Origin: a virus | IMG/VR virus record: IMGVR_UViG_3300046355_000226 | Location: 1-28,432 of that record | Length of the DNA: 28,432 nucleotides | Reading direction: 5' to 3' (one strand) | Shown: one piece after another, positions 1 through 19,904 of the stretch | How the letters are laid out: every line of letters begins with the position of its first letter | Position numbering within the stretch: position 1 is the first letter of the stretch | Notes under the pieces: generated by a model | Told to the model about the DNA's origin: nothing | Database searches by the model: none | The model's input: the letters and a program-made list of their open reading frames with translations, nothing else | Program-made: the position numbers and the translations under genes

Positions 1-1087
1 TGATGTATGATACAACATCGTGCGCTGTATATGCATTCTCTAGGAAAGACATGTGACGCTTCATATCTACACCAGAATCAAGAACATTACTTTTGTAGCT
101 TTGATCTGTATTGTATAAAGAACCATCGTTTGGAATACCATCTACCATGTATCTAGCAGAACGTGCAGGGTGTAATAACTCAAGAGACTCTAATTGTTCC
201 TCCGTCATCAAATACCCAAACTTATCAACTACATCGGCAATAGTCATCATGTCAATATAACCAGCCCAGTTCCCTTGGGAAATGTATTGTGTGTTTGGTG
301 ATTTGTGGTAAAATGTTAAAGCGGGATTTAACAATTGAATATCATAATCATCTTCTAACATTTTGAAATGCCAGAACTCACTGTCAGTAACAAGTGAATC
401 TCTAAATGCAACTTCTTCCATTTCATCCATTCTGAAACGGTTAGTGTCAATAGCGTGTTGTTTAACAGCCCACTTTTCTCCTAAAGTTTGGTATTTTTTA
501 GAATAGAACTCTTCAATCTCAGGAAGTTTTTTTAATGCTTCCGGGTCCATTTGCTGTTGCGCTTCTTGTGAATTAGGATCCATTCCCATTTCCAACATGT
601 GCGCGAGTAATTTTTGCTGTGCGTACTCAACTAATACTTTACTGATCTCTTCAGTTTTCTTAGACATGATTTCATTGTAAGAATACTCATCAATTGCGCG
701 ATAGTCAATCTTAGTGTTTCTTTTTGCAAATTCAGAAACCAATGTGTTAATCACATTAGGAATGATTGGATAAAACTTTAACTCAAGTGCTTCATTCTGC
801 CCTTCAGTTAAAACTTCTAAGACTTCATTCATTTCATTCTCTACTGCTGGAATGTAATCACTTTTATCAATTGTCCCTTTTGCAAGTTTATAATTCTTCA
901 TTATACGTCTTGCTTTAGCCTGGATCTGTTTAATTCCTTGCCACTCTAACCAATCCATATTGTGTTTGCTCCACTCATCATCCTTTTCAGTTGCAGGAAT
1001 GAATTGAATTGGTTGAGTAAAAACACCAAATTTATTTTTTTTGGTCTTTTTACCTTTTTTTATGTCCATTGCATTTAATAGCTCCAT
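1..1087 (-). CDS. Phage portal protein, N-terminal part (cut by window edge)
   Basis: Open frame of 362 codons from an ATG at 1085-1087 that runs off the left edge without a stop. The product begins with a Lys-rich stretch (MELLNAMDIKKGKKTKK), then a long acidic and helical region with many Glu/Gln residues, including a Gln-rich segment around NSQEAQQQMDPEALKK. Its ATG overlaps the terminase stop by one base (TAATG), so the two are translationally coupled. In tailed phages, and in crAss-like phages in particular, the gene next to the large terminase usually encodes the dodecameric portal through which DNA enters the capsid. The call rests on this position, the size and the helical character. 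No catalytic motif is expected. Another head protein is possible but less likely. Confidence 0.75.
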   Translation of the reverse strand, partial: MELLNAMDIKKGKKTKKNKFGVFTQPIQFIPATEKDDEWSKHNMDWLEWQGIKQIQAKARRIMKNYKLAKGTIDKSDYIPAVENEMNEVLEVLTEGQNEALELKFYPIIPNVINTLVSEFAKRNTKIDYRAIDEYSYNEIMSKKTEEISKVLVEYAQQKLLAHMLEMGMDPNSQEAQQQMDPEALKKLPEIEEFYSKKYQTLGEKWAVKQHAIDTNRFRMDEMEEVAFRDSLVTDSEFWHFKMLEDDYDIQLLNPALTFYHKSPNTQYISQGNWAGYIDMMTIADVVDKFGYLMTEEQLESLELLHPARSARYMVDGIPNDGSLYNTDQSYKSNVLDSGVDMKRHMSFLENAYTAHDVVSYI

Positions 1088-3312
1088 TATCTAAAATTTT
1101 TAAAGGGGTTCCTTGGTTTTTGCATAGAAAGTGATTGATTTGCACCTCCTATGTGTCTAAAGGGACTCCTATTTAATTTATACAAATTTTCTGACTTTTC
1201 CAAATGTTCTTCATTATCATATTCAGTTCTCTTCTTTAATCCGCGACTAGCTTCCTGAATTCTAACAAAAGCAATTAAAGCACCCAAAGATATAAGTCTA
1301 TCCACATTGACACCCGGTTGGTAATGTTCCATCTCAACGAGAGCCATGTAATCCGGTATTCTACTAATACCATAATACTTCTTATATACTTTGCCATTGT
1401 CATCTGTTTCTTCATCTAATTCTTCTCTTAGGTACTCAATTAAATAACTGAGCATTATGCTTTTAAATATTGTTGATACGTTTCTCCAACCGTATTGCTG
1501 GAACTGTGTTTTTGATTGTTGTATTTCTTTTGAAAACAACATCTGTGTAGAAGGAACTAAATACTTTTGCTTTCTTTTAAACTGCATGTATTGAATGAAT
1601 AAAGGCACGTTGTTCTCTACAATAGTCCAAGCCGCATACCATTCAATCATTAACTCCAATCGCTCATGTGTTTTGTTAATGTCATCAAAACGACCACACC
1701 ATGCAGCAACAATTTTGTCTCCTTCAATAAATGTTTCTACTTCACCGTTTACTTTAACTCTTTGTATTTGGACAGGGTTTTTATAGATGTGAATAGAACA
1801 AAGTGAATCTGAAGTTACAGTTTTACCTTCAGACACGGGATCGACTGATGCAAAATATGTTGTGCAAAAATCTTTTTCTTCATCAGGTTCTTCCCATACT
1901 TGTATAGCTCCTGTTTTATCTTCAGCTGTTTTATCTACAGGAAAAATTAATATTGGCTTTTTTGTAGTGGGTTTAGAAATTATTTGACCTTTATTGTCAT
2001 ACTCAAGATTGATACATCTGTAAGGGTAATCTCCTTCTTCAATATCTCTCTTCATAGATTTAACTAATTCTATAGGGAAAAGACTTTCTCCTCTAAATGC
2101 AAATGCTTCTTCTAAGTTTGTTGGATGCTGTGAAATACGAATTTGATATTGCTCTGGAGCCAAATCTTTTTTCCACTGTTTTCTTTTTTCTTCAATTGCT
2201 GCAAGTGCGGCTTCAATTTGACTATTTCCAAACTCATCAATGTATGGAGGCATTGACCATTGTTCTGGAATAAATAAACCTGTTGTAAGAATAGTTCCTT
2301 TTGGATCACACCATTTATTACGCACACCATAGAAACCATTTCCTTCTGGTTTGTACATGAATAATTTAAGCGGTTCACATTGTTTCAAATCACCTACGGA
2401 TCCTGCTGCAATAAAGTATCCAGTTGTAATATCTCCAGACTCCATGGCAGGACGCATGAACTCGTAAGTTTTATCCATTGATTTGGCAATTCCAGCCTCT
2501 TCATAAAAAAACAAAGTACATAAACCCCCTACACCGGCTGTATCTGATTGCTCAAAAGATAATGACTGCAATACTCCTTTTCTACCTTTTTCAGTTTTTC
2601 GTCCATTTTCAACATACTCAATTTTCTGTTGCCACTCACCAACACCACCTGGGTTCATTGGTCTATACCATGCAGTGTGCTTATTTAAGAATATACGATA
2701 AGCTTGTAGAATTTTCCAAGTACCAGTTACACCTGTAATGTATGCAGAAAGAGATGCTCCAATTTTTAAGATTGGTGATTGTTCAAACCAAAGAATATTT
2801 AAAAGCTTGGCTGCATGATATAAAGAAGAACCAAATTGACGTTTCTTTAAAACAACACCATGCTTGTAATCCAACTCACCAATAAACTCATAAAGAGCCA
2901 TGTGCATTTGAGAATCCCAAATATCAGTAAAGTCATCTTCTTTTTTTACTTTATCTGGAATTTGCAAAAAGTTAATCCAGAAATAGTAATCACGTGGCAA
3001 ATACCATTTTTTTTTATTGTTCCAAAAGAAACAACCTTTTCTTGATCTTAGTTTTTGCGCATCCCAGTAGTTTATAAAATCACGACTACCTTCAGGTTGA
3101 TCACAATAGTAACCATGCTGTCTAAAGTAATTACCTTCTTTTTGCCATTCTAAAACAGTTTCATCTAATTGGTATTCACCAGGTTCTTTAAAGTAATTTT
3201 TTTGTAAATCAAGTTTAAATTCTTCTCTGGTGTTGTATGAAACAGTTGTCCAAACCCCGTTATCATAACAAGGTATTTCTTCATAAATTGGTCCTAGTTT
3301 GTCGTGTAGCAT
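1087..3312 (-). CDS. Terminase large subunit (TerL), crAss-like type
   Basis: 741-aa DNA-packaging motor: an N-terminal ATPase pumps DNA into the procapsid and a C-terminal RNase H-fold nuclease cuts the concatemer. Visible parts are a Walker A-like segment KKRQFGSS (residues 156-163, a degenerate P-loop), Walker B TLFFYEEAG (266-274, hydrophobic strand then EE), and a nuclease acidic strand FASVDPVSEG with Asp491, followed by the ENN segment and a late Asp (VDRLIS) that probably complete the metal site. The length exceeds the roughly 450-600 aa of most TerL proteins and agrees with the long crAss-like form. It lies 10 bp downstream of the 170-aa gene and overlaps the portal ATG. The start at 3312 fits that short gap. 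Confidence 0.92.
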   Translation of the reverse strand: MLHDKLGPIYEEIPCYDNGVWTTVSYNTREEFKLDLQKNYFKEPGEYQLDETVLEWQKEGNYFRQHGYYCDQPEGSRDFINYWDAQKLRSRKGCFFWNNKKKWYLPRDYYFWINFLQIPDKVKKEDDFTDIWDSQMHMALYEFIGELDYKHGVVLKKRQFGSSLYHAAKLLNILWFEQSPILKIGASLSAYITGVTGTWKILQAYRIFLNKHTAWYRPMNPGGVGEWQQKIEYVENGRKTEKGRKGVLQSLSFEQSDTAGVGGLCTLFFYEEAGIAKSMDKTYEFMRPAMESGDITTGYFIAAGSVGDLKQCEPLKLFMYKPEGNGFYGVRNKWCDPKGTILTTGLFIPEQWSMPPYIDEFGNSQIEAALAAIEEKRKQWKKDLAPEQYQIRISQHPTNLEEAFAFRGESLFPIELVKSMKRDIEEGDYPYRCINLEYDNKGQIISKPTTKKPILIFPVDKTAEDKTGAIQVWEEPDEEKDFCTTYFASVDPVSEGKTVTSDSLCSIHIYKNPVQIQRVKVNGEVETFIEGDKIVAAWCGRFDDINKTHERLELMIEWYAAWTIVENNVPLFIQYMQFKRKQKYLVPSTQMLFSKEIQQSKTQFQQYGWRNVSTIFKSIMLSYLIEYLREELDEETDDNGKVYKKYYGISRIPDYMALVEMEHYQPGVNVDRLISLGALIAFVRIQEASRGLKKRTEYDNEEHLEKSENLYKLNRSPFRHIGGANQSLSMQKPRNPFKNFR

Positions 3313-11327: not shown

Positions 11328-13547
11328 TTAGATTATTCCCAACATGTATTTTTCAGCATTTTTTATTGAGTCATCATTGGCTAACATTATTTCAAATATC
11401 TTAGGACTAACATGTTCTGGATGAATCCACCAATCTTCATAAGGACATGAATCATTAGGAGCAATGTTGCTTACTACAAGTACATAACCTTTAGCAAGCA
11501 AAAACTCTCTTGACTTTTCCCTATAGAGTTTGGTGACATCAGTATAAAAGTCATGCTCATAAGTAATTACACCAAATGTACATTTGTCCCAAGGCAGCAT
11601 TGTAAGAATGTCATACGTTGTTTTTGGCGGTTCACAATCTACTTGTAAATAATCTATATGCCCTTCAAGAACAGAGTAATCAAATTTAGTTGCATCACAC
11701 AAAATAATTTCATTATGTCTAGCTACTTTAAATTTTTCAACTTCATGTGGAAGAATTTCCAATGATGTTCCAGTCCAACCAAATTCTTCTAGCAATGCTG
11801 TATTACTTCCATGAAAAGGATCTGCTGCACCAATTTCAAAATATTTACCATTTCTTTTACCATCCAGCATTGACAAAGTAAACATGTCTTGATAAGTTTG
11901 AGAATAATTTTTCTCAATGTTTTCTGCTCCAGGGAACTTATATCTAAGATTTTCATAAAAACCTTTATGGTATCTTAAAAACGGATCTGGTCCAGAACCA
12001 AGAGATGTAATATTAGTTTGAACTAAGTCTTTATATTTTTGTGATAATTTTTCTCCTTTGTTCACAAGTTTAATGAAACAGTCGCGTGATTCTTGAGATC
12101 TACCAATCCACCATGCTGAAACTGCTTGTTGAAATTCAAGTTGATATTTTCCAAGATAACCAACATTACTTGTGATATTATCAGCATGTTCTGCATTTGC
12201 TAATCCTGCAATTGCATAAGAATATGCTTCATGGTATTGTTGATTTGATTCAGCTATTTCACTTAGAAACAAATAAGCTTCTGGTCTTTCTGGAGCAAAT
12301 GCCATAGCATTTAACCACAAACCTTTTTCAGTAGTTCTTCTACGACCTTGTACACTAATGCATTTAGCAACCATTAATAATGATTCATACACATTTTCAT
12401 AAAAGTTTCCATACTCAGCTGCACGCAAATAAAAAGCTAATGCAGATGCAGTGTGACCTTGTTCAAAATAAAATTCAGCTAGTTTAAAATTATTAGCAGC
12501 ATGGAATGGATCTTTGATGAAATTTTCTAATTTACTTGGCGTTATTCCTTTAGACTTATATTCTTGATCATACTCTAATATTATATTTGTCATTGATTCA
12601 AACACATGTCTCGGTAGTCTTAAAATAAAGGCCGTAGAGTCTTGGAAACCAAAAGGAATGATAAAGTCATTGCCATCAAAAGCTAAACCGCAGGAGAACT
12701 CAATATTTGCAGTCATGAACTTAAATTCTTCTGAGTGCGCAACTATGTTCCAGTTTCTGTCCCAAACAATAAATCTATGGTAATAATGAGCATCTTTTTT
12801 ATCTTGCTCATTTTTCCATAAATCTACTTCATGTGTAATAGCTATTCTGTAATCACCTACTGTAATTACTTGTGACCCACCGCGTATATCTCTTGGGATA
12901 TTAAGATTTTGTTCAACAAGCTTTACTGTTTCGGAAGTGTTTGTTCCTGGGATGTGTTTAACAATTTCTGTAGGAGAAGACCATTTGACATAATGAAACG
13001 GCATATCAAGAATTGGCATCCAGTTCTTTTCACAATAAGATGTAGTAGGTGGTTCAATTCTTGTTCTTTTAACTTCTGCATTGTCTTCAATTAAAGACAA
13101 TTCCATTCTACCTTCACCATTTGTTTTAGTATCTCTTCTAACACCTGTAAGGTATAAATTGTTTTCCCAGTTAACAACGCGGGCATCTTCTAATCCAATA
13201 AATTCCCAAACAGGTTTTACATCTAATTTTGATGTATCAACTTTATGTACTATGTCAATTCCAAGTGTGTTAGAATCTAATTTACACAAATAGTTTGTTG
13301 TTCTCAATGTAACATCATCTTCTGGATTTAAGTAAGCCAGAGGACCCCAAAGAGTTTGGAATTTTTGCTTACCTTCACTATGATACAAAGTATATTGCAC
13401 ATGTCTTAGGTTAAGCAAATACTCGCCATTATTATAAACAAGAGAAGGATTAGTAAGTCCTAATCCTTCAGTTATATTTGCGGGAATTAAAAGATAATTT
13501 ACAGAGCCTCCGTTTTCTAAAGCTCTCTTACACAAGTTATTATTCAT
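11328..13547 (-). CDS. Three-part fusion: GH130/GH43-like propeller, TPR region, FkbM-type methyltransferase
   Basis: 739 aa. Residues 1-330 look like a five-bladed beta-propeller of the GH130/GH43 clan (NPSLVY at 33-38, GLEDARVV at 118-125, LYLTG at 131-135). Residues 345-525 are helical repeats of TPR style (AEFYFEQGHTASALAFYLRA and similar units). Residues 555-739 carry an FkbM-family SAM-dependent methyltransferase: GKYFEIGAADP at 567-577 (SAM-binding strand), GSNTALLEEFGWTG at 580-594 and later acidic residues (DYLQVDCE). FkbM enzymes methylate sugar hydroxyls, and propellers of this type bind or cut glycans. The combination suggests modification of a surface glycan on the virion or host, which is inference. 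It has its own TATATTTG promoter (13567-13574) and is the only large predicted enzyme in the fibre region. Confidence 0.75.
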   Translation of the reverse strand: MNNNLCKRALENGGSVNYLLIPANITEGLGLTNPSLVYNNGEYLLNLRHVQYTLYHSEGKQKFQTLWGPLAYLNPEDDVTLRTTNYLCKLDSNTLGIDIVHKVDTSKLDVKPVWEFIGLEDARVVNWENNLYLTGVRRDTKTNGEGRMELSLIEDNAEVKRTRIEPPTTSYCEKNWMPILDMPFHYVKWSSPTEIVKHIPGTNTSETVKLVEQNLNIPRDIRGGSQVITVGDYRIAITHEVDLWKNEQDKKDAHYYHRFIVWDRNWNIVAHSEEFKFMTANIEFSCGLAFDGNDFIIPFGFQDSTAFILRLPRHVFESMTNIILEYDQEYKSKGITPSKLENFIKDPFHAANNFKLAEFYFEQGHTASALAFYLRAAEYGNFYENVYESLLMVAKCISVQGRRRTTEKGLWLNAMAFAPERPEAYLFLSEIAESNQQYHEAYSYAIAGLANAEHADNITSNVGYLGKYQLEFQQAVSAWWIGRSQESRDCFIKLVNKGEKLSQKYKDLVQTNITSLGSGPDPFLRYHKGFYENLRYKFPGAENIEKNYSQTYQDMFTLSMLDGKRNGKYFEIGAADPFHGSNTALLEEFGWTGTSLEILPHEVEKFKVARHNEIILCDATKFDYSVLEGHIDYLQVDCEPPKTTYDILTMLPWDKCTFGVITYEHDFYTDVTKLYREKSREFLLAKGYVLVVSNIAPNDSCPYEDWWIHPEHVSPKIFEIMLANDDSIKNAEKYMLGII

Positions 13548-13566: not shown

Positions 13567-13574
13567 CAAATATA
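13567..13574 (-). promoter_or_regulatory. Bacteroidota-type -7 box before the propeller-TPR-FkbM gene
   Basis: Minus-strand TATATTTG, 20 bases upstream of the ATG at 13547. Between box and ATG is a hairpin with stem GTTGG/CCAAC and a 6-base loop (ACAAAA), a possible operator or attenuator. The gene has its own promoter rather than depending on upstream read-through. Confidence 0.6.
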
Positions 13575-13577
13575 AGA

Positions 13578-13904
13578 TTAATTTTCAAACGGTGGAGGCA
13601 GTGTTACATCCAAAGGTGTGATTTGTAAATTAACTTGTTTAGTTAAATTTTCCTGCAGGGCTGATACATCTAAAGTTGCTTCTAACCATCCTACTACTTG
13701 CTCTTTAGTTAAACTGTTGTAGTTTGTAAAATTTGCAGGTGTTGGAACACCTACTTCTTGAGCTCCGTATGCTTCAGCAAAATATTCTTTTTCACCAACC
13801 GTTTCTTTAGCAGAATATCTCCAGTGTACAGTTTTAACTACATCAGTTAATCCTTCTAGTTCAACAATGCAGTCCATTGCTGATATTGTCCAATTAAATA
13901 TCAT
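13578..13904 (-). CDS. Conserved phage protein with VHWRYSA / LTKEQVVGWL pattern
   Basis: 108 aa. An N-terminal beta part (FNWTISAMDCIVELEGL, then VVKTVHWRYSAKET), a middle region with a Tyr-Gly/Ala stretch, and a C-terminal helix (NYNSLTKEQVVGWLEATL) followed by a Pro-rich end. I recognise this as a common small phage protein of the VHW type (annotated as a domain of unknown function). It is thought to be structural or assembly-related, from its neighbours. It begins within the ATGA junction with the preceding 55-aa gene. Confidence 0.75.
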   Translation of the reverse strand: MIFNWTISAMDCIVELEGLTDVVKTVHWRYSAKETVGEKEYFAEAYGAQEVGVPTPANFTNYNSLTKEQVVGWLEATLDVSALQENLTKQVNLQITPLDVTLPPPFEN

Positions 13905-14098: not shown

Positions 14099-16105
14099 TT
14101 ATACATACATTACACTTCGCCAACCTTGTGACTGAGTGTAAACATTTAATTCTTCTCTATCAACATTAAATACAACTAAACCATTAGCTGGTGATACAAT
14201 ATTATATATATCTCCTTGTGACATTCTTGGAGGTAAAAATCCTTTTGTTATTGATTCAAGATGTAATAGCGCACTTGCATCTGGTGCATTTATTCCAATG
14301 CCTACATTTCCACTTGGATCTAGTCTCATGACTTCATTTCCATTTGTACCAAAAAGAATTGATTTTGTTGCACCATATTGAATAAAATAAGTGTCTTTGC
14401 CGTATAGTTCAATTCGGTTATTTACACCATCCCAATGTCCAATTGTTATGTTTCCAGTTCCATCACTAATATTAACTGCTTGTGTAGATGCAGCTCCAGT
14501 TCTAACAGCAAACATATAGCCGGGTGAAGTTGTTCCAATTCCAATATTTCCATTTCCAGGGAAATACATTGTGTTTCCTGCTATGCTTACTAAGTCAGTT
14601 GTATTATTTCCAATAAATGAAAAACTTGAATTTAGATAAAAGTTTGTGCCATTAAAATAAGCATCTCCTCCTGAATGAAATGTTCCATTTACATCCAGTT
14701 TGTAGTTTGGTGATATAGTTCCTATACCTACATTACCACTTCCAGATAAAGTCATTGCATCATACATTGCATATGACCCAGTTTGATTTCTGAATACTTG
14801 AAAGTTTAATCCACCCGCATAAGGCTGATAACCTGAATCCCAAAACCCGTATATTTTTCCACCTATATCTGAACCATTATCGTGTGCGTAAAATATTCCT
14901 TTCCCAACTTGGATTGATGATCCATAATAAACATTACTACTACCAACACCAATTGTTCCAGCAAAATAAGTTACTCCAGTTGTACCTCCATTAATTTGCA
15001 AATATGCGTTTATATCATTTGAAATAATGTTTCTGAATCTAACTTCATTTTGAAAATATGATCCACCAGAAGCTGTGACATAAAAATATCCATTACCAAC
15101 AACGGCCATTCCGGCATTTCCATCACCTGTGATGTATGTATCATTTGAATTATATGGATAAATTCTTGACCCACCAATAAAACCGTTTACATCAAGTTTG
15201 TAATTTGGACTTGTTGTTCCAATACCTACATTACCTAATGCCTTTACAACAAATAATGTACTAGCCCCATTTACAACTTTAACAAAATTATTATTTGCAG
15301 AATTTAAACCTTGGCTTCCATTTGATTGAAATACAAAAGCATCTGGTGCATCTGCCCAACTTCCACTTGTCTGATTAATTATACGATAGCCATCCAATTG
15401 CATATAAGATGCAGCATAAGTGGGGCTTATAATTTTTGTAATTGTAAGCGGTAAGTTTGAACCAAAAGAACCATCTGTTCTATAGGTAATAGTTCCAATC
15501 AAAGTACCTCCTGGGTTATCAGTTCTACATATAGATAATCCACCAACACCTACTTGAACATTACCGGCATTATTTACTTTTAAATGATAACCTGTTACAG
15601 CACTATTGATAATTCCAAAAGCATTATCTGTTGCTAAAGCACTTTTAGCAAGTACTTCTAGTTGTGCATAATTAGCATCAAAGTATGAAAAATTTACACT
15701 TAATGTATTACCAGGTGTAATTCTTGATGAAGATAGATTTAATTTACCATTATAACCAAAAATAGAACCCTGTGCAGAACCACCATTATTACTGAATGAT
15801 AATGTTGGATAGTATTGTCCAGCAGGTTGCGCAATTGACATACCTGGGCTTGTTACACCTGCCGCAGTAAGTGCTCCGGTAGATGTAACTTTAAACAAGG
15901 TACTTGAATTTGCTGCATTATTTATTATAAATGCATCACTGGCTCCATTTACCAAAATTTTTAAACCAGTACCAAATGTCAAATTTGAACTTTGCTGAAG
16001 TTTGCCTGCACTTTCAAAATAAATTCCATTTGTAACAGCAGATTGCGCAACTGTTGAACCTGTTATTATTGGGGCTGTTATTGAAATACCATTAATTATT
16101 GCCAT
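14099..16105 (-). CDS. Tail fibre/adhesin with four GNVGIG repeats
   Basis: 668 aa, Ser/Asn/Gly/Thr-rich and beta-structured, like long phage fibres. The motif GNVGIGTTSPNYKLDVNG appears in four variant copies (near 15185-15240, 14690-14745, 14510-14555 and 14270-14315), the form common to fibre and adhesin tips in Bacteroidota phages. The C-terminus (residues about 590-668) contains LHLESITKGFLPPRMSQ and LNVYTQSQGWRS, an end found in similar proteins. No intramolecular chaperone (peptidase S74) domain is visible. Likely a receptor-binding fibre or its shaft. The repeat blocks give the DNA short direct repeats. Confidence 0.75.
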   Translation of the reverse strand: MAIINGISITAPIITGSTVAQSAVTNGIYFESAGKLQQSSNLTFGTGLKILVNGASDAFIINNAANSSTLFKVTSTGALTAAGVTSPGMSIAQPAGQYYPTLSFSNNGGSAQGSIFGYNGKLNLSSSRITPGNTLSVNFSYFDANYAQLEVLAKSALATDNAFGIINSAVTGYHLKVNNAGNVQVGVGGLSICRTDNPGGTLIGTITYRTDGSFGSNLPLTITKIISPTYAASYMQLDGYRIINQTSGSWADAPDAFVFQSNGSQGLNSANNNFVKVVNGASTLFVVKALGNVGIGTTSPNYKLDVNGFIGGSRIYPYNSNDTYITGDGNAGMAVVGNGYFYVTASGGSYFQNEVRFRNIISNDINAYLQINGGTTGVTYFAGTIGVGSSNVYYGSSIQVGKGIFYAHDNGSDIGGKIYGFWDSGYQPYAGGLNFQVFRNQTGSYAMYDAMTLSGSGNVGIGTISPNYKLDVNGTFHSGGDAYFNGTNFYLNSSFSFIGNNTTDLVSIAGNTMYFPGNGNIGIGTTSPGYMFAVRTGAASTQAVNISDGTGNITIGHWDGVNNRIELYGKDTYFIQYGATKSILFGTNGNEVMRLDPSGNVGIGINAPDASALLHLESITKGFLPPRMSQGDIYNIVSPANGLVVFNVDREELNVYTQSQGWRSVMYV

Positions 16106-16115
16106 TGTCTTTTTT

Positions 16116-19100
16116 TTAAATTACCACCCAGGTATTATCTGGATTAAATCTTATTATACATGCGCCATTTGTTTGTGTAGCAGATTCCCAATAACAATGT
16201 CCAACTAATCTTGCTATATATCCGCTGGTAGTTGGAACATTTTCTGAAACATTTCCTGCAACAGTATCTGAAATATATAATGGTTTAGCAGCACTTTCCG
16301 ATCCAAATTGATCATGAGATTCAGTTGAATAAAAACCATGCAATAAAACTTGAATTGTTTGATCAGCTCCCCCTGTATCATTTAACACAACCCCCAATAA
16401 CCATACGGAACCTCCATTACTAGCACCTGCTCTAAACCATTTTCTGGTAGTTCTGTCCATATACACTACTTGAGTTTTAACTAAAGCTTCTCCAGAAGTT
16501 TCTGCTATTAATATTTCACCAGTTGCGTATAAAACACTCCAATCAGCTAATTCACTAAGTGTATTAGTAATTCCAGAATTTATTGTTACAGAAAATAAAG
16601 AAGGATCACCAACTCGTCCTGCAATCATTGTTCCAGTTCCACTGTCAAATTGAGCTCTATATTCAGCAACCATTCCTCCAGAACCATCTGAAGTTAAAAT
16701 TTCATTATTGTTACCTGGAACAACAGAATAACCTGTTGTACCTTGTGGTCCTTGTATTCCTGTAGTTCCGGTTGTTCCTTGAATACCTGTAGTACCTTGT
16801 CTTCCCTGAACTCCTTGAACCCCTTGCGAACCAATAGCGCCTTGAGAACCCGTTGCCCCAGTAGCTCCAATAGCACCTTGACTGCCAGTTGTTCCTTGGC
16901 TACCTGTACTTCCAATTGAACCTTGCGAACCTGTTGTTCCTGTAGCACCTTGTGCTCCGGTTGCTCCAATAGATCCTTGAGATCCAATAGCACCTTGCGC
17001 ACCAGTTGAACCCGTATTACCAGTAGTTCCTTGACGACCTTGGACACCTTGCGCACCCTGACTACCAGTTGACCCAGTAGCACCGATTGCTCCTTGTGCG
17101 CCAATAGAACCCTGTGCTCCAGTTGAGCCCGTTGTTCCTTGACTGCCGGTTGCTCCTATAGATCCTTGACTACCTACAGCACCTTGGGAACCTGTGCTTC
17201 CAATAGCACCTTGGGAACCAGTCGCGCCCGTTGTACCTTGGCGACCTTGCACACCTTGAACCCCTTGTGTACCTTGGCTACCTATTGCACCAGTTGATCC
17301 GGTTGATCCTTGACTTCCTGTAGCTCCTATCGCACCTTGGCTTCCCGTAGCTCCAGTGTTACCTGTAGCACCTTGTATTCCTGTAAGTCCTTGCGAACCT
17401 GTGCTACCTTGAGCACCGGTTAATCCTGTATTTCCTGTAGATCCTTGAGATCCTGTATTTCCAGTTATACCTTGGGAACCAGTCGCTCCTTGACTACCGG
17501 TTGAACCTGTGCTACCTTGACTTCCCGTTGCACCAATAGCTCCTTGTGAACCAATAGTTCCTTGTATTCCTTGAATACCTGTCAATCCTTGTATGCCGTT
17601 TGTTCCTTGTCTACCTTGCAGTCCTTGTATTCCCTGGATTCCTTGCGTTCCCTGAGAACCGGTTAATCCTGTAGCACCAGTAGAACCTTGCGCTCCTGTA
17701 ATTCCTTGACTGCCAGTTGCACCTGTAGAACCCTGTGATCCAGTATTTCCTGTTGTACCTTGTGAACCTACCGCACCTTGTGAACCTGTAGATCCAACTG
17801 AACCCTGACTACCAGTAGCTCCTGTTGAACCTTGTATTCCTATTGCGCCTTGAGCTCCAGTATTTCCTAACAATCCTTGAATTCCTTGAATTCCTTGAGC
17901 TCCTGTATTTCCAATTAAACCTTGTATTCCTTGTATACCAGTTAAGCCTTGTATACCTTGAATCCCAATAGCTCCTTGTATTCCGGTTACACCTTGTAAT
18001 CCAGTTATACCTTGAATACCTTGCGGACCGGTTATATTTCCTACATCATCCCATTCGGCACCGTCCCAAACCCATAAGTGTCCAGTGTCAGTGGTAATGT
18101 AACCATCTCCTACAGAACCAGTATATGAATTTGGCCAACCTGGTAATGCTGTTGATGTAGAAACACTTCCAATTATTGTTACAGATGTTCCTGATGTACC
18201 TTGAGATCCAATAAATCCTTGGATTCCTTGCGTACCCTGCACACCTTGTAAACCTGTTATACCTTGAGACCCAACTAAACCTTGTGAACCGGTTGACCCC
18301 TGCATTCCAGTAATTCCTTGTGTGCCCTGAAGACCTTGAACTCCTTGTGTGCCTTGAGAACCTTGCGATCCAATTGCACCTTGAGAACCGGTTTGTCCAA
18401 TTGCGCCTTGAGAACCTGTTGAACCTTGAGAACCTGTTGAACCAGTTGTACCTTGGGACCCTGTATCACCGGTTGTTCCTTGTGTACCAGTTGTTCCTTG
18501 AGATCCGGTACTGCCAGTTGTCCCTTGTGCTCCAGTTAATCCAAGTACGCCTTGGGTTCCTTGTACACCTTGTGTTCCTTGCGCACCCGTAGCGCCCGTG
18601 GCACCTTGACTACCAGTCACACCTTGTTGACCAACAGAACCTTGAAGTCCAACTAATCCTTGGATGCCTTGAGATCCTGTTAATCCAGTTGTTCCTTGAA
18701 TTCCATTTGTTCCTTGGCTACCTGTAGAACCCGTTGTTCCTTGGCTACCAATTTCTCCAGTTGTGCCTTGTACACCCTGTATGCCTTGAATGCCTTGTAA
18801 TCCATTTAAACCTTGCGTACCTTGAACACCTTGAAGTCCTTCTAAGCCTTGAATTCCCTGAATACCCTGTAATCCAATCAAACCTTGCAAGCCTTGTATT
18901 CCTTGTGTACCTTGACTGCCTACTAAACCTTGAGTTCCTTGTAAACCTACTGACCCTTGTGAACCAGTATTACCAGTTAAACCTTGAGGGCCTGTTGTAC
19001 CTTGGATTCCTTGTGAACCCAATATACCTTGAGATCCTGTAGCACCAATTGAACCTTGGATGCCTTCGGTTCCTTGTGCGCCAGTACTACCAACAGAACC

Positions 19101-19904
19101 TTGAGATCCTATGTTTCCTATAGTTCCCTGAATACCTTGGGTACCGACAGCGCCTTGAGTACCTGTTTGTCCTTGAGAACCAACTGTACCTTGAGCACCA
19201 ACCGTTCCTTGGCTACCAGTTACACCTTGTGCTCCAGTAATTCCTTGTGTTCCTTGGTTTCCAGTAATACCCGTAGAGCCTTGCATACCAATTGCTCCTT
19301 GTGAACCTGTAGATCCAGTACTTCCTTGTGAACCGGTATTACCCATTGTTCCTTGCACACCTTGATTTCCAACGGAACCTTGTATACCTGTATTTCCTTG
19401 CGCGCCTTGAGCACCAATGATTCCTTGAGAACCTTGACAACCCATTGCACCTTGTATTCCTTTTCCTCCTTGAATTCCTTGGATACCTTGCGGTCCTTGA
19501 ATTCCTTGGATGCCTTGAGCACCACAACAACCCTGTACACCTACATTACCTTCAGTTCCCTGAATTCCTTGAGTTCCTGTTTCACCCAATGGGCCAATAG
19601 TTCCTTGGATTCCTAAAGAACCTTGTAGTCCTTTTAAACCTTGAGCGCCTTGATTACCAGTTACACCTTGATAACCTAAATTTCCTTGAATTCCGTCAAT
19701 TCCTTGTACACCTTGCGGACCTTTATATCCTTGAACACCAGTGTTACCTTGTACACCGGTTGTACCCTGAATACCTTGAGCTGCAAATAAACCGTCAAGA
19801 CCTTGAATACCTTGAATACCAAGATCGCCTTGAATACCTGTAGTACCTTGAGGACCTCTAAGTCCTACGGTCTTTAGATAACCATTTTTGTCTACAACTT
19901 CCAT
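16116..19904 (-). CDS. Giant collagen-like fibre protein, nearly proline-free triplets
   Basis: 1262 aa. Gly-X-Y triplets run from about residue 14 to 568 and from 625 to 1055, about 330 triplets in all. Y is mostly Gln or Thr and X is Ile, Ala, Ser, Val or Leu, so the helix is not stabilised by proline as in animal collagen. The break at 568-625 is a compact beta segment with [11 protein letters not shown] and a Gly-Asp-Gly turn, like small phage fibre modules. Residues 1057-1262 are a non-collagen C-terminal domain, probably the trimerisation or receptor-binding head. A thin, very long (about 280 nm if fully extended at 0.29 nm per residue) trimeric fibre is the likely form. ATG overlaps the preceding stop by one base. 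The GC-richer triplets explain long spurious frames on both strands. Confidence 0.85.

What the first reader, a model, noticed from the sequence alone, without database searches (positions are those of the whole stretch)
11328..13547. One phage protein joins a glycoside-hydrolase-like propeller, TPR repeats and an FkbM methyltransferase
GLEDARVV/LYLTG propeller signatures, a helical repeat region and an FkbM SAM-binding block (GKYFEIGAADP, SNTALLEEFGWTG) are in one chain under its own TATATTTG promoter, among virion genes. Such a combination on a virion or expressed late would permit glycan recognition and methylation, perhaps to mask phage or host surface sugars. I do not know a described equivalent.
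Basis: partly seen in the sequence, partly recalled or inferred. Interest (0 to 1): 0.7.

Follow-up and report, generated by a model that had tools for sequence, protein, structure and literature searches.

The report
Phage propeller-TPR-methyltransferase glycan-building enzyme
A phage carries one protein that joins a mannosyl-transfer-type enzyme domain, a protein-binding arm and a methyltransferase; hundreds of related phages carry the same set, often near collagen-like tail fibres, which suggests that phages build and cap sugars on their own fibres.

Summary
Window 11328-13547 (-) encodes one 739-residue protein with three well-modelled domains (AlphaFold2 pLDDT 92, pTM 0.85): a five-bladed propeller whose best structural matches are GH130/GT108 beta-mannoside phosphorylases and mannosyltransferases (Z up to 22), a TPR arm, and a class I methyltransferase that is FkbM-like by motif. 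The three residues that hold mannose in GH130 (Asn73, Asp131, Asp344 of BfMGP) map to N33, D121 and D303, invariant across the family.

It is no one-off: at least 597 phage matches in IMG/VR, almost none in cellular genomes. Propeller and TPR are fused or adjacent in 99 of 100 distinct loci; the methyltransferase is present in 82. Neighbours are glycan-building genes. Collagen-like genes lie upstream in 30 of 68 testable loci, downstream in 3 of 90. In 13 loci a PKHD-type hydroxylase gene abuts the propeller, and these phages have proline-rich collagen-like fibres (0.36 versus 0.02 Pro per triplet).

Most likely reading: a cytoplasmic enzyme that adds and O-methylates a sugar, probably on the phage's own tail fibres. 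Substrate and activity are inferred. PBCV-1 A064R and mimivirus L230 are functional precedents. New variant of a known kind.

The parts
11328..13547 (-). propeller-TPR-methyltransferase protein, 739 aa
   Evidence: relatives
12573..13547 (-). five-bladed beta-propeller, GH130/GT108-like (residues 1-325)
   Evidence: VIA Z 22.5 to 5ay9, 22.0 to 9fj8, 17.4 to MPT-2 6q4z; Foldseek E 3e-8; hhalign to GH130 E 4.8e-8, prob 93% in global mode, prob 26% in local mode
13449..13451 (-). N33, aligns with the -1 subsite Asn of GH130 (BfMGP Asn73)
   Evidence: invariant in A2; alignment; role from PMC4264767
13179..13196 (-). GLEDAR motif; D121 aligns with the candidate catalytic acid (BfMGP Asp131), E120 with BT3780 Glu141
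   Evidence: invariant E120, D121, R123; PMC4599007
12639..12641 (-). D303, aligns with the -1 subsite Asp of GH130 (BfMGP Asp344)
   Evidence: invariant
12000..12530 (-). TPR-like helical arm (residues 340-516)
   Evidence: model; Foldseek to OGT/SPINDLY TPR enzymes; phrog_13126, named beta-1,4-glycosyltransferase, E 3e-7 over 346-502
11331..11987 (-). class I SAM methyltransferase, FkbM-like (residues 521-739)
11817..11849 (-). SAM motif I GKYFEIGAADP (E571, G573 invariant)
13567..13574 (-). TATATTTG, Bacteroidota-type -7 box, 19 nt before the start codon
   Evidence: consensus match only
14099..16105 (-). tail fibre gene upstream
   Evidence: phrog_9942 E 4e-9
16116..19904 (-). collagen-like fibre gene, 1262 aa, 331 G-x-y triplets rich in S, T, Q: proposed acceptor

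Best explanation
A soluble, phage-specific glycan-building enzyme. The propeller, of GH130/GT108 type, moves a beta-mannosyl (or similar) unit from a sugar phosphate or sugar nucleotide to an acceptor by an inverting reaction with D121 as the acid/base. The TPR arm holds the acceptor, as in O-GlcNAc transferase. The methyltransferase then O-methylates the added sugar as a cap. The acceptor is most likely the phage's own collagen-like or neighbouring tail fibre, modified in the cytoplasm before assembly; in some relatives a PKHD-type hydroxylase first hydroxylates the proline of that fibre. Shown here: folds, conserved pocket residues, near-obligate coupling of the modules, biosynthetic neighbours, position next to collagen-like genes, co-variation of the hydroxylase gene with fibre proline. 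Inferred: donor, linkage, direction of reaction, methyl acceptor, fibre as target.
For: Fold and pocket: with residue roles from PMC4264767 and PMC4599007. In hydrolases the phosphate-binding basic residues are replaced by Glu; the phage family keeps invariant basic residues in that region (R222, H239), of which H239 aligns with the GH130 His. Coupling: TPR fused or within two genes in 99 of 100 distinct loci, this methyltransferase in 82; split genes often overlap by a few bases. Anabolic company: FkbM, GT2, GT17, GT25-like, WavE, radical SAM/SPASM; cytidylyltransferase plus mannose-6-phosphate-isomerase cupin in 15 loci. Fibre link: collagen-like ORF upstream within 6 kb in 30 of 68 loci (11 of 20 clusters), downstream in 3 of 90 (3 of 23 clusters). 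Hydroxylase (hits PKHD-type hydroxylases and weakly prolyl 4-hydroxylase) abuts the propeller gene in 13 loci; Pro per G-x-y triplet 0.355 with it (n=10) and 0.02 without (n=45), p 2e-6, and 3 clusters against 17 all in one direction.
Against: No activity, donor or product is known. Sequence-only membership in GH130 and FkbM is weak. GH130 enzymes are often catabolic. Collagen-like genes are common in phage tail modules, and some relatives (contigs of L080, L058, L070, L178, L160) show no Pfam collagen match or have them 15-30 kb away, so the fibre may be a neighbour and not the substrate. The hydroxylase/proline link rests on three clusters, is not corrected for a full phylogeny, was noticed before it was tested, and does not apply to this window, whose fibre has almost no proline and no hydroxylase gene beside it.
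Confidence: 0.5

Rival explanations
1. The enzyme modifies the host's surface polysaccharide (LPS or capsule), for example to stop superinfection.
For: Neighbours include WavE-like LPS enzymes and RfaE-like cytidylyltransferase; the authors of PMC7029224 propose this for pelagimyophage glycosyltransferases.
Against: Position with fibre genes, TPR arm typical of protein acceptors, hydroxylase/proline co-variation with the collagen-like fibre. Broad conservation across phages of apparently unlike hosts suggests a phage-borne acceptor.
Confidence: 0.25
2. The propeller is a degrading enzyme (beta-mannosidase or phosphorylase) that trims or salvages host glycans.
For: Closest characterised folds are phosphorylases.
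Against: Anabolic neighbours, fusion to a methyltransferase and TPR, no secretion signal, hydrolase-type Glu pair not evident. GT108 shows that the same fold can make mannosides.
Confidence: 0.12
3. The protein is itself a virion part that binds host glycans, as the first reader suggested as one option.
For: Gene among fibre genes.
Against: Invariant catalytic-type pockets in two enzyme domains; often split into two separate genes.
Confidence: 0.06
4. It modifies phage DNA (sugar plus methyl on bases).
For: Phage glycosyltransferases are often assigned this role in the papers read here.
Against: Next to fibre genes in the window and many relatives; propeller fold is a mannoside enzyme; no link seen to modified-base genes.
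Confidence: 0.04

Closest known systems
GH130 beta-mannoside phosphorylases/mannosidases (CAZy)
   Same: five-bladed propeller, -1 subsite Asn/Asp/Asp conserved, xEDxR motif
   Different: below the Pfam PF04041 cut-off; about 10-17% identity; phage-specific, coupled to TPR and methyltransferase; activity unknown
GT108 mannosyltransferase-phosphorylases of Leishmania (MPT/MTP)
   Same: same fold (Z 16.7-17.4); a precedent for synthesis by this fold
   Different: single domain, mannogen metabolism, remote sequence
Chlorovirus PBCV-1 A064R
   Same: one viral chain with glycosyltransferase domains and a methyltransferase that caps the added sugar on the capsid glycan (PMC9614988)
   Different: unrelated glycosyltransferase folds, no TPR, eukaryotic virus
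Mimivirus L230
   Same: hydroxylates and glucosylates a viral collagen-like protein (PMC9614988), as proposed for the hydroxylase-bearing phage cassettes
   Different: GT25-like plus lysyl hydroxylase in one chain; collagen lysine and not proline
O-GlcNAc transferase / SPINDLY
   Same: TPR arm joined to a sugar transferase (Foldseek hits)
   Different: GT-B catalytic domain (own knowledge), no methyltransferase
Cyanophage genes annotated MGP protein / beta-mannosyltransferase + FkbM methyltransferase (S-SCSM2R, DSL-LC02)
   Same: same family in split form; in DSL-LC02 next to a collagen-like gene
   Different: split genes; no study of function found in the library

Membership tests
GH130/GT108 clan (propeller) | five-bladed beta-propeller matching GH130/GT108 structures above other propellers | tested here: met
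   the top 21 rows are GH130 or look GH130-like by title; the first GH43 row is at Z 17.6, GT108 at 16.7-17.4, so GT108 alone is not set apart from GH43 by Z
GH130/GT108 clan (propeller) | Asn, Asp (acid), Asp of the -1 subsite | tested here: met
   N33, D121, D303 aligned and invariant; the mapping is by profile alignment, not by superposed coordinates
GH130 (Pfam PF04041) | score over the curated cut-off | tested here: not met
   window protein no hit; 6 of 63 members at E 2e-4 to 0.05
GH130 phosphorylase subgroup | three basic phosphate-binding residues | tested here: inconclusive
   invariant R222 and H239 are candidates; equivalence not proven without superposed coordinates
GH130/GT108 clan (propeller) | beta-mannosyl transfer or phosphorolysis | not testable with these tools
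   needs enzyme assay
FkbM methyltransferases (PF05050/TIGR01444) | class I SAM fold with motif I | tested here: met
   model pLDDT 95.8, Z about 12 to many class I enzymes; E571/G573 invariant
FkbM methyltransferases (PF05050/TIGR01444) | score over the curated cut-off | tested here: not met
   window protein no hit; 8 of 63 members E 5e-4 to 0.05; no TIGR01444 hit in 38
TPR proteins | 34-residue helical pairs forming a superhelix | tested here: met
   helical pairs 338-516; TPR models hit many members, best 2e-8; weak in the window protein

The most novel reading that the evidence does not exclude
Bacterial viruses have a dedicated system that modifies their own collagen-like tail fibres after translation: a hydroxylase in some phages, a GH130/GT108-like transferase on a TPR scaffold in nearly all, and an exchangeable capping enzyme (methyltransferase, GT25-like, WavE-like, radical SAM). 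This would be a phage counterpart of animal collagen hydroxylation and glycosylation, and would give a function to some of the many unexplained 2OG-Fe(II) oxygenases of aquatic phages.
Probability: 0.4. Interest if true: 0.82.

Novelty: new variant of a known kind. Interest (0 to 1): 0.62.

Why it matters
Sugars on phage fibres would affect host recognition, fibre stability and phage competition, and few phage virion glycans are known (own knowledge). The family is very common in environmental phage contigs yet hardly annotated. [quoted passage not shown] the standing idea is control of host 2-oxoglutarate and nitrogen (PMC3037559).

Tried and rejected
Sequence search of the window protein and of the propeller and methyltransferase profiles against PDB: nothing useful. 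Local hhalign to GH130 gave only 26% probability; the global run with another match-column rule gave 93%, so structure carries the case. hhalign of the methyltransferase to six canonical FkbM domains was weak (prob 11-32%). No FkbM structure stood out in the structural list for the methyltransferase; the hits are generic class I enzymes, so 'FkbM' rests on motif and weak Pfam hits. Idea that the family is bacterial and borrowed: rejected, only 9 hits among genomes of 84,980 species, on fragmentary contigs that fall among viral rows in the tree. Idea that the three-domain fusion is a one-off or assembly artefact: rejected, 34 of 103 distinct loci have it, nearly all in one derived clade. Lysine hydroxylation: fibres contain almost no lysine in the G-x-y runs, L164 excepted. 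Literature search found no study of this family.

Full report
OBSERVATION. The reading frame is as stated: 11328-13547 on the minus strand, 739 residues, start ATG. It lies 30 bases after a small gene (13578-13904) and downstream, on the same strand, of a tail fibre gene (14099-16105) and a long collagen-like gene (16116-19904). The record is a 28.4-kb virus contig. Its terminase is distantly related (about 25%) to crAss-like and Flavobacterium phages, which suggests a Bacteroidota host. A TATATTTG box sits 19 nt before the start. TANNTTTG occurs 59 times in the window against 42.5 expected (1 of 100 shuffles reaches 59), so the box is plausible and not proven.

DOMAINS. Profile libraries see little in this single protein, so structure decides. 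AlphaFold2 with 63 related rows gives pLDDT 92.3 and pTM 0.85 over the whole chain. Residues 1-325 are a propeller. Foldseek's first 16 PDB rows are all GH130 or GT108 enzymes (best E 3e-8). VIA-align gives Z 22.5 to RaMP1, 22.0 to Teth514_1788 and 17.4 to the GDP-mannose-dependent MPT-2. Other propellers such as GH43 begin at 17.6, so GH130 stands clear while GT108 is level with GH43 by Z alone. Residues 338-516 are helical pairs that match the TPR parts of O-GlcNAc transferase and SPINDLY, and a phage family called beta-1,4-glycosyltransferase (phrog_13126, E 3e-7). Residues 521-739 are a class I SAM fold (pLDDT 95.8 alone; Z about 12 to generic class I enzymes).

ACTIVE SITE. In BfMGP the mannose in subsite -1 is recognised by Asn73, Asp131 and Asp344 (PMC4264767), and the BT3780 residues at that subsite include Asn74, Asp142 and Asp363 (PMC4599007). 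Profile alignment places N33, D121 and D303 on the matching GH130 motifs; all three are invariant in 26 diverse propellers. E120 corresponds to BT3780 Glu141, a +1 subsite ligand. GH130 hydrolases replace the phosphate-binding basic residues by glutamates. The phage family keeps invariant R222 and H239 in that region, and H239 aligns with the GH130 histidine; R222 is only a candidate. This favours use of a phosphate or phospho-sugar and speaks against plain hydrolysis. In the methyltransferase E571 and G573 of motif I are invariant in 38 rows.

FAMILY. Only 9 turned up among genomes of 84,980 cellular species, on fragmentary contigs, and they fall among viral rows in the tree. In annotated phages the gene pair occurs in Synechococcus phages S-SCSM2R and DSL-LC02; in DSL-LC02 it sits between a collagen-like gene and a tail fibre gene. 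Among 100 distinct loci with enough sequence, the TPR part is in the same chain or within two genes in 99 and this methyltransferase in 82. The states are 62 split, 34 three-domain fusions, 6 propeller-TPR and 1 propeller-methyltransferase with the TPR next. The tree puts the fusions mainly in one derived clade of 38, with a few other origins (quick tree, SH-aLRT only). So the natural unit is propeller plus TPR with a changeable partner: GT25-like (L070), WavE-like (L073), canonical FkbM (L157, L186, L075), radical SAM/SPASM (L080, L186). Predicted proteins of pithoviruses and other giant viruses resemble the model too, several of them annotated as glycan enzymes; the length of these matches suggests that it is the propeller that aligns, but the aligned range was not reported.

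NEIGHBOURHOOD. Neighbouring genes build or move sugars: GT2, GT17, FkbM, and a mannose-6-phosphate-isomerase-type cupin fused to a cytidylyltransferase (15 loci). Collagen-like reading frames (at least 8 consecutive G-x-y) lie within 6 kb upstream in 30 of 68 loci with at least 2.5 kb upstream, and downstream in 3 of 90; counted by clusters of 65% identity, 11 of 20 and 3 of 23. Of 28 larger contigs 23 have a collagen match, but in some it is 15-30 kb away and five have none.

HYDROXYLASE AND PROLINE. In 13 distinct loci a 2OG-Fe(II) oxygenase gene abuts or overlaps the propeller gene (spacing -19 to +14 nt). It matches PKHD-type hydroxylases and, weakly, prolyl 4-hydroxylase. In contigs with this arrangement the collagen-like stretches hold a median of 0.355 proline per triplet (10 contigs), against 0.02 in 45 without it (Mann-Whitney p 2e-6; G+C 0.40 and 0.37). 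By cluster it is 3 against 17 with no overlap, and within one cluster L072 (with, 0.36) contrasts with L073 and L176 (without, 0.06 and 0). Two contigs of the first group are low (L172 0.05, L164 0.17), L175 was left out because its hydroxylase lies several genes away, and L179, with a distant weak match, was counted as without. The test was made after the pattern had been seen in a first composition table and the contigs were chosen from the fetched loci, so it needs an independent repeat. It is still the strongest sign that the cassette acts on the collagen-like fibre. In this window there is no such hydroxylase gene nearby and the fibre is rich in serine, threonine and glutamine.

MECHANISM PROPOSED. 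Shown: folds, pocket residues, module coupling, neighbourhood. Inferred: (1) a sugar, most likely mannose, is moved by the propeller to an acceptor; (2) the TPR arm presents the acceptor; (3) the methyltransferase caps the sugar; (4) the acceptor is the phage's fibre. No signal-like or membrane stretch was seen (maximum 19-residue hydropathy 0.91), in keeping with action in the cytoplasm before assembly. GT108 is a precedent for synthesis by this fold (PMC8950772), A064R for a viral transferase-methyltransferase chain, L230 for modification of a viral collagen-like protein (PMC9614988), and glycosylated BclA for bacterial collagen-like proteins (PMC8968730).

NOVELTY. Each part is of a known kind; the combination on a TPR scaffold in bacterial viruses, its spread, and its tie to collagen-like fibres were not found described in the library searched. 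Most subscription papers are not in that library.

Noticed in passing
L157, L158, L161, L162, L164, L172, L077, L078, L079, L072 (gene upstream of the propeller): A PKHD-type 2OG-Fe(II) oxygenase gene abuts the propeller gene, and the collagen-like fibres of these contigs are mostly proline-rich while those of the others are not.
   Followed up: partly
L077:5095-5940, L080:9636-12491, L186:1136-3721: Radical SAM/SPASM enzymes adjacent or fused to the cassette (Pfam match in 6 of 45 scanned neighbours); a peptide- or sugar-modifying role is possible.
   Followed up: no
BFVD hits: Giant-virus proteins (pithovirus LCPAC, Solivirus, Indivirus, EsV-1) resemble the model, some in chains annotated as fucosyltransferase, LicD or pyruvyl transferase.
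   Followed up: no
cluster 4, e.g. L047:7093-7533: Small genes of about 110 aa (phrog_7802), often in two copies (32 copies in 17 loci), just upstream of the split propeller genes.
   Followed up: no
L060:2280-3071, L046:10256-11017: Cytidylyltransferase fused to a mannose-6-phosphate-isomerase-type cupin, overlapping or adjacent to the methyltransferase gene; the homologue occurs in 15 distinct loci.
   Followed up: partly
window 16116-19904: Collagen-like fibre of 1262 aa with 331 G-x-y triplets, Q at half and T at almost a third of the Y positions, proline and lysine not among the common residues.
   Followed up: partly
window 1087-3312: Terminase about 25% identical to crAss-like and Flavobacterium phage terminases; no closer match in the phage collection.
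   Followed up: no
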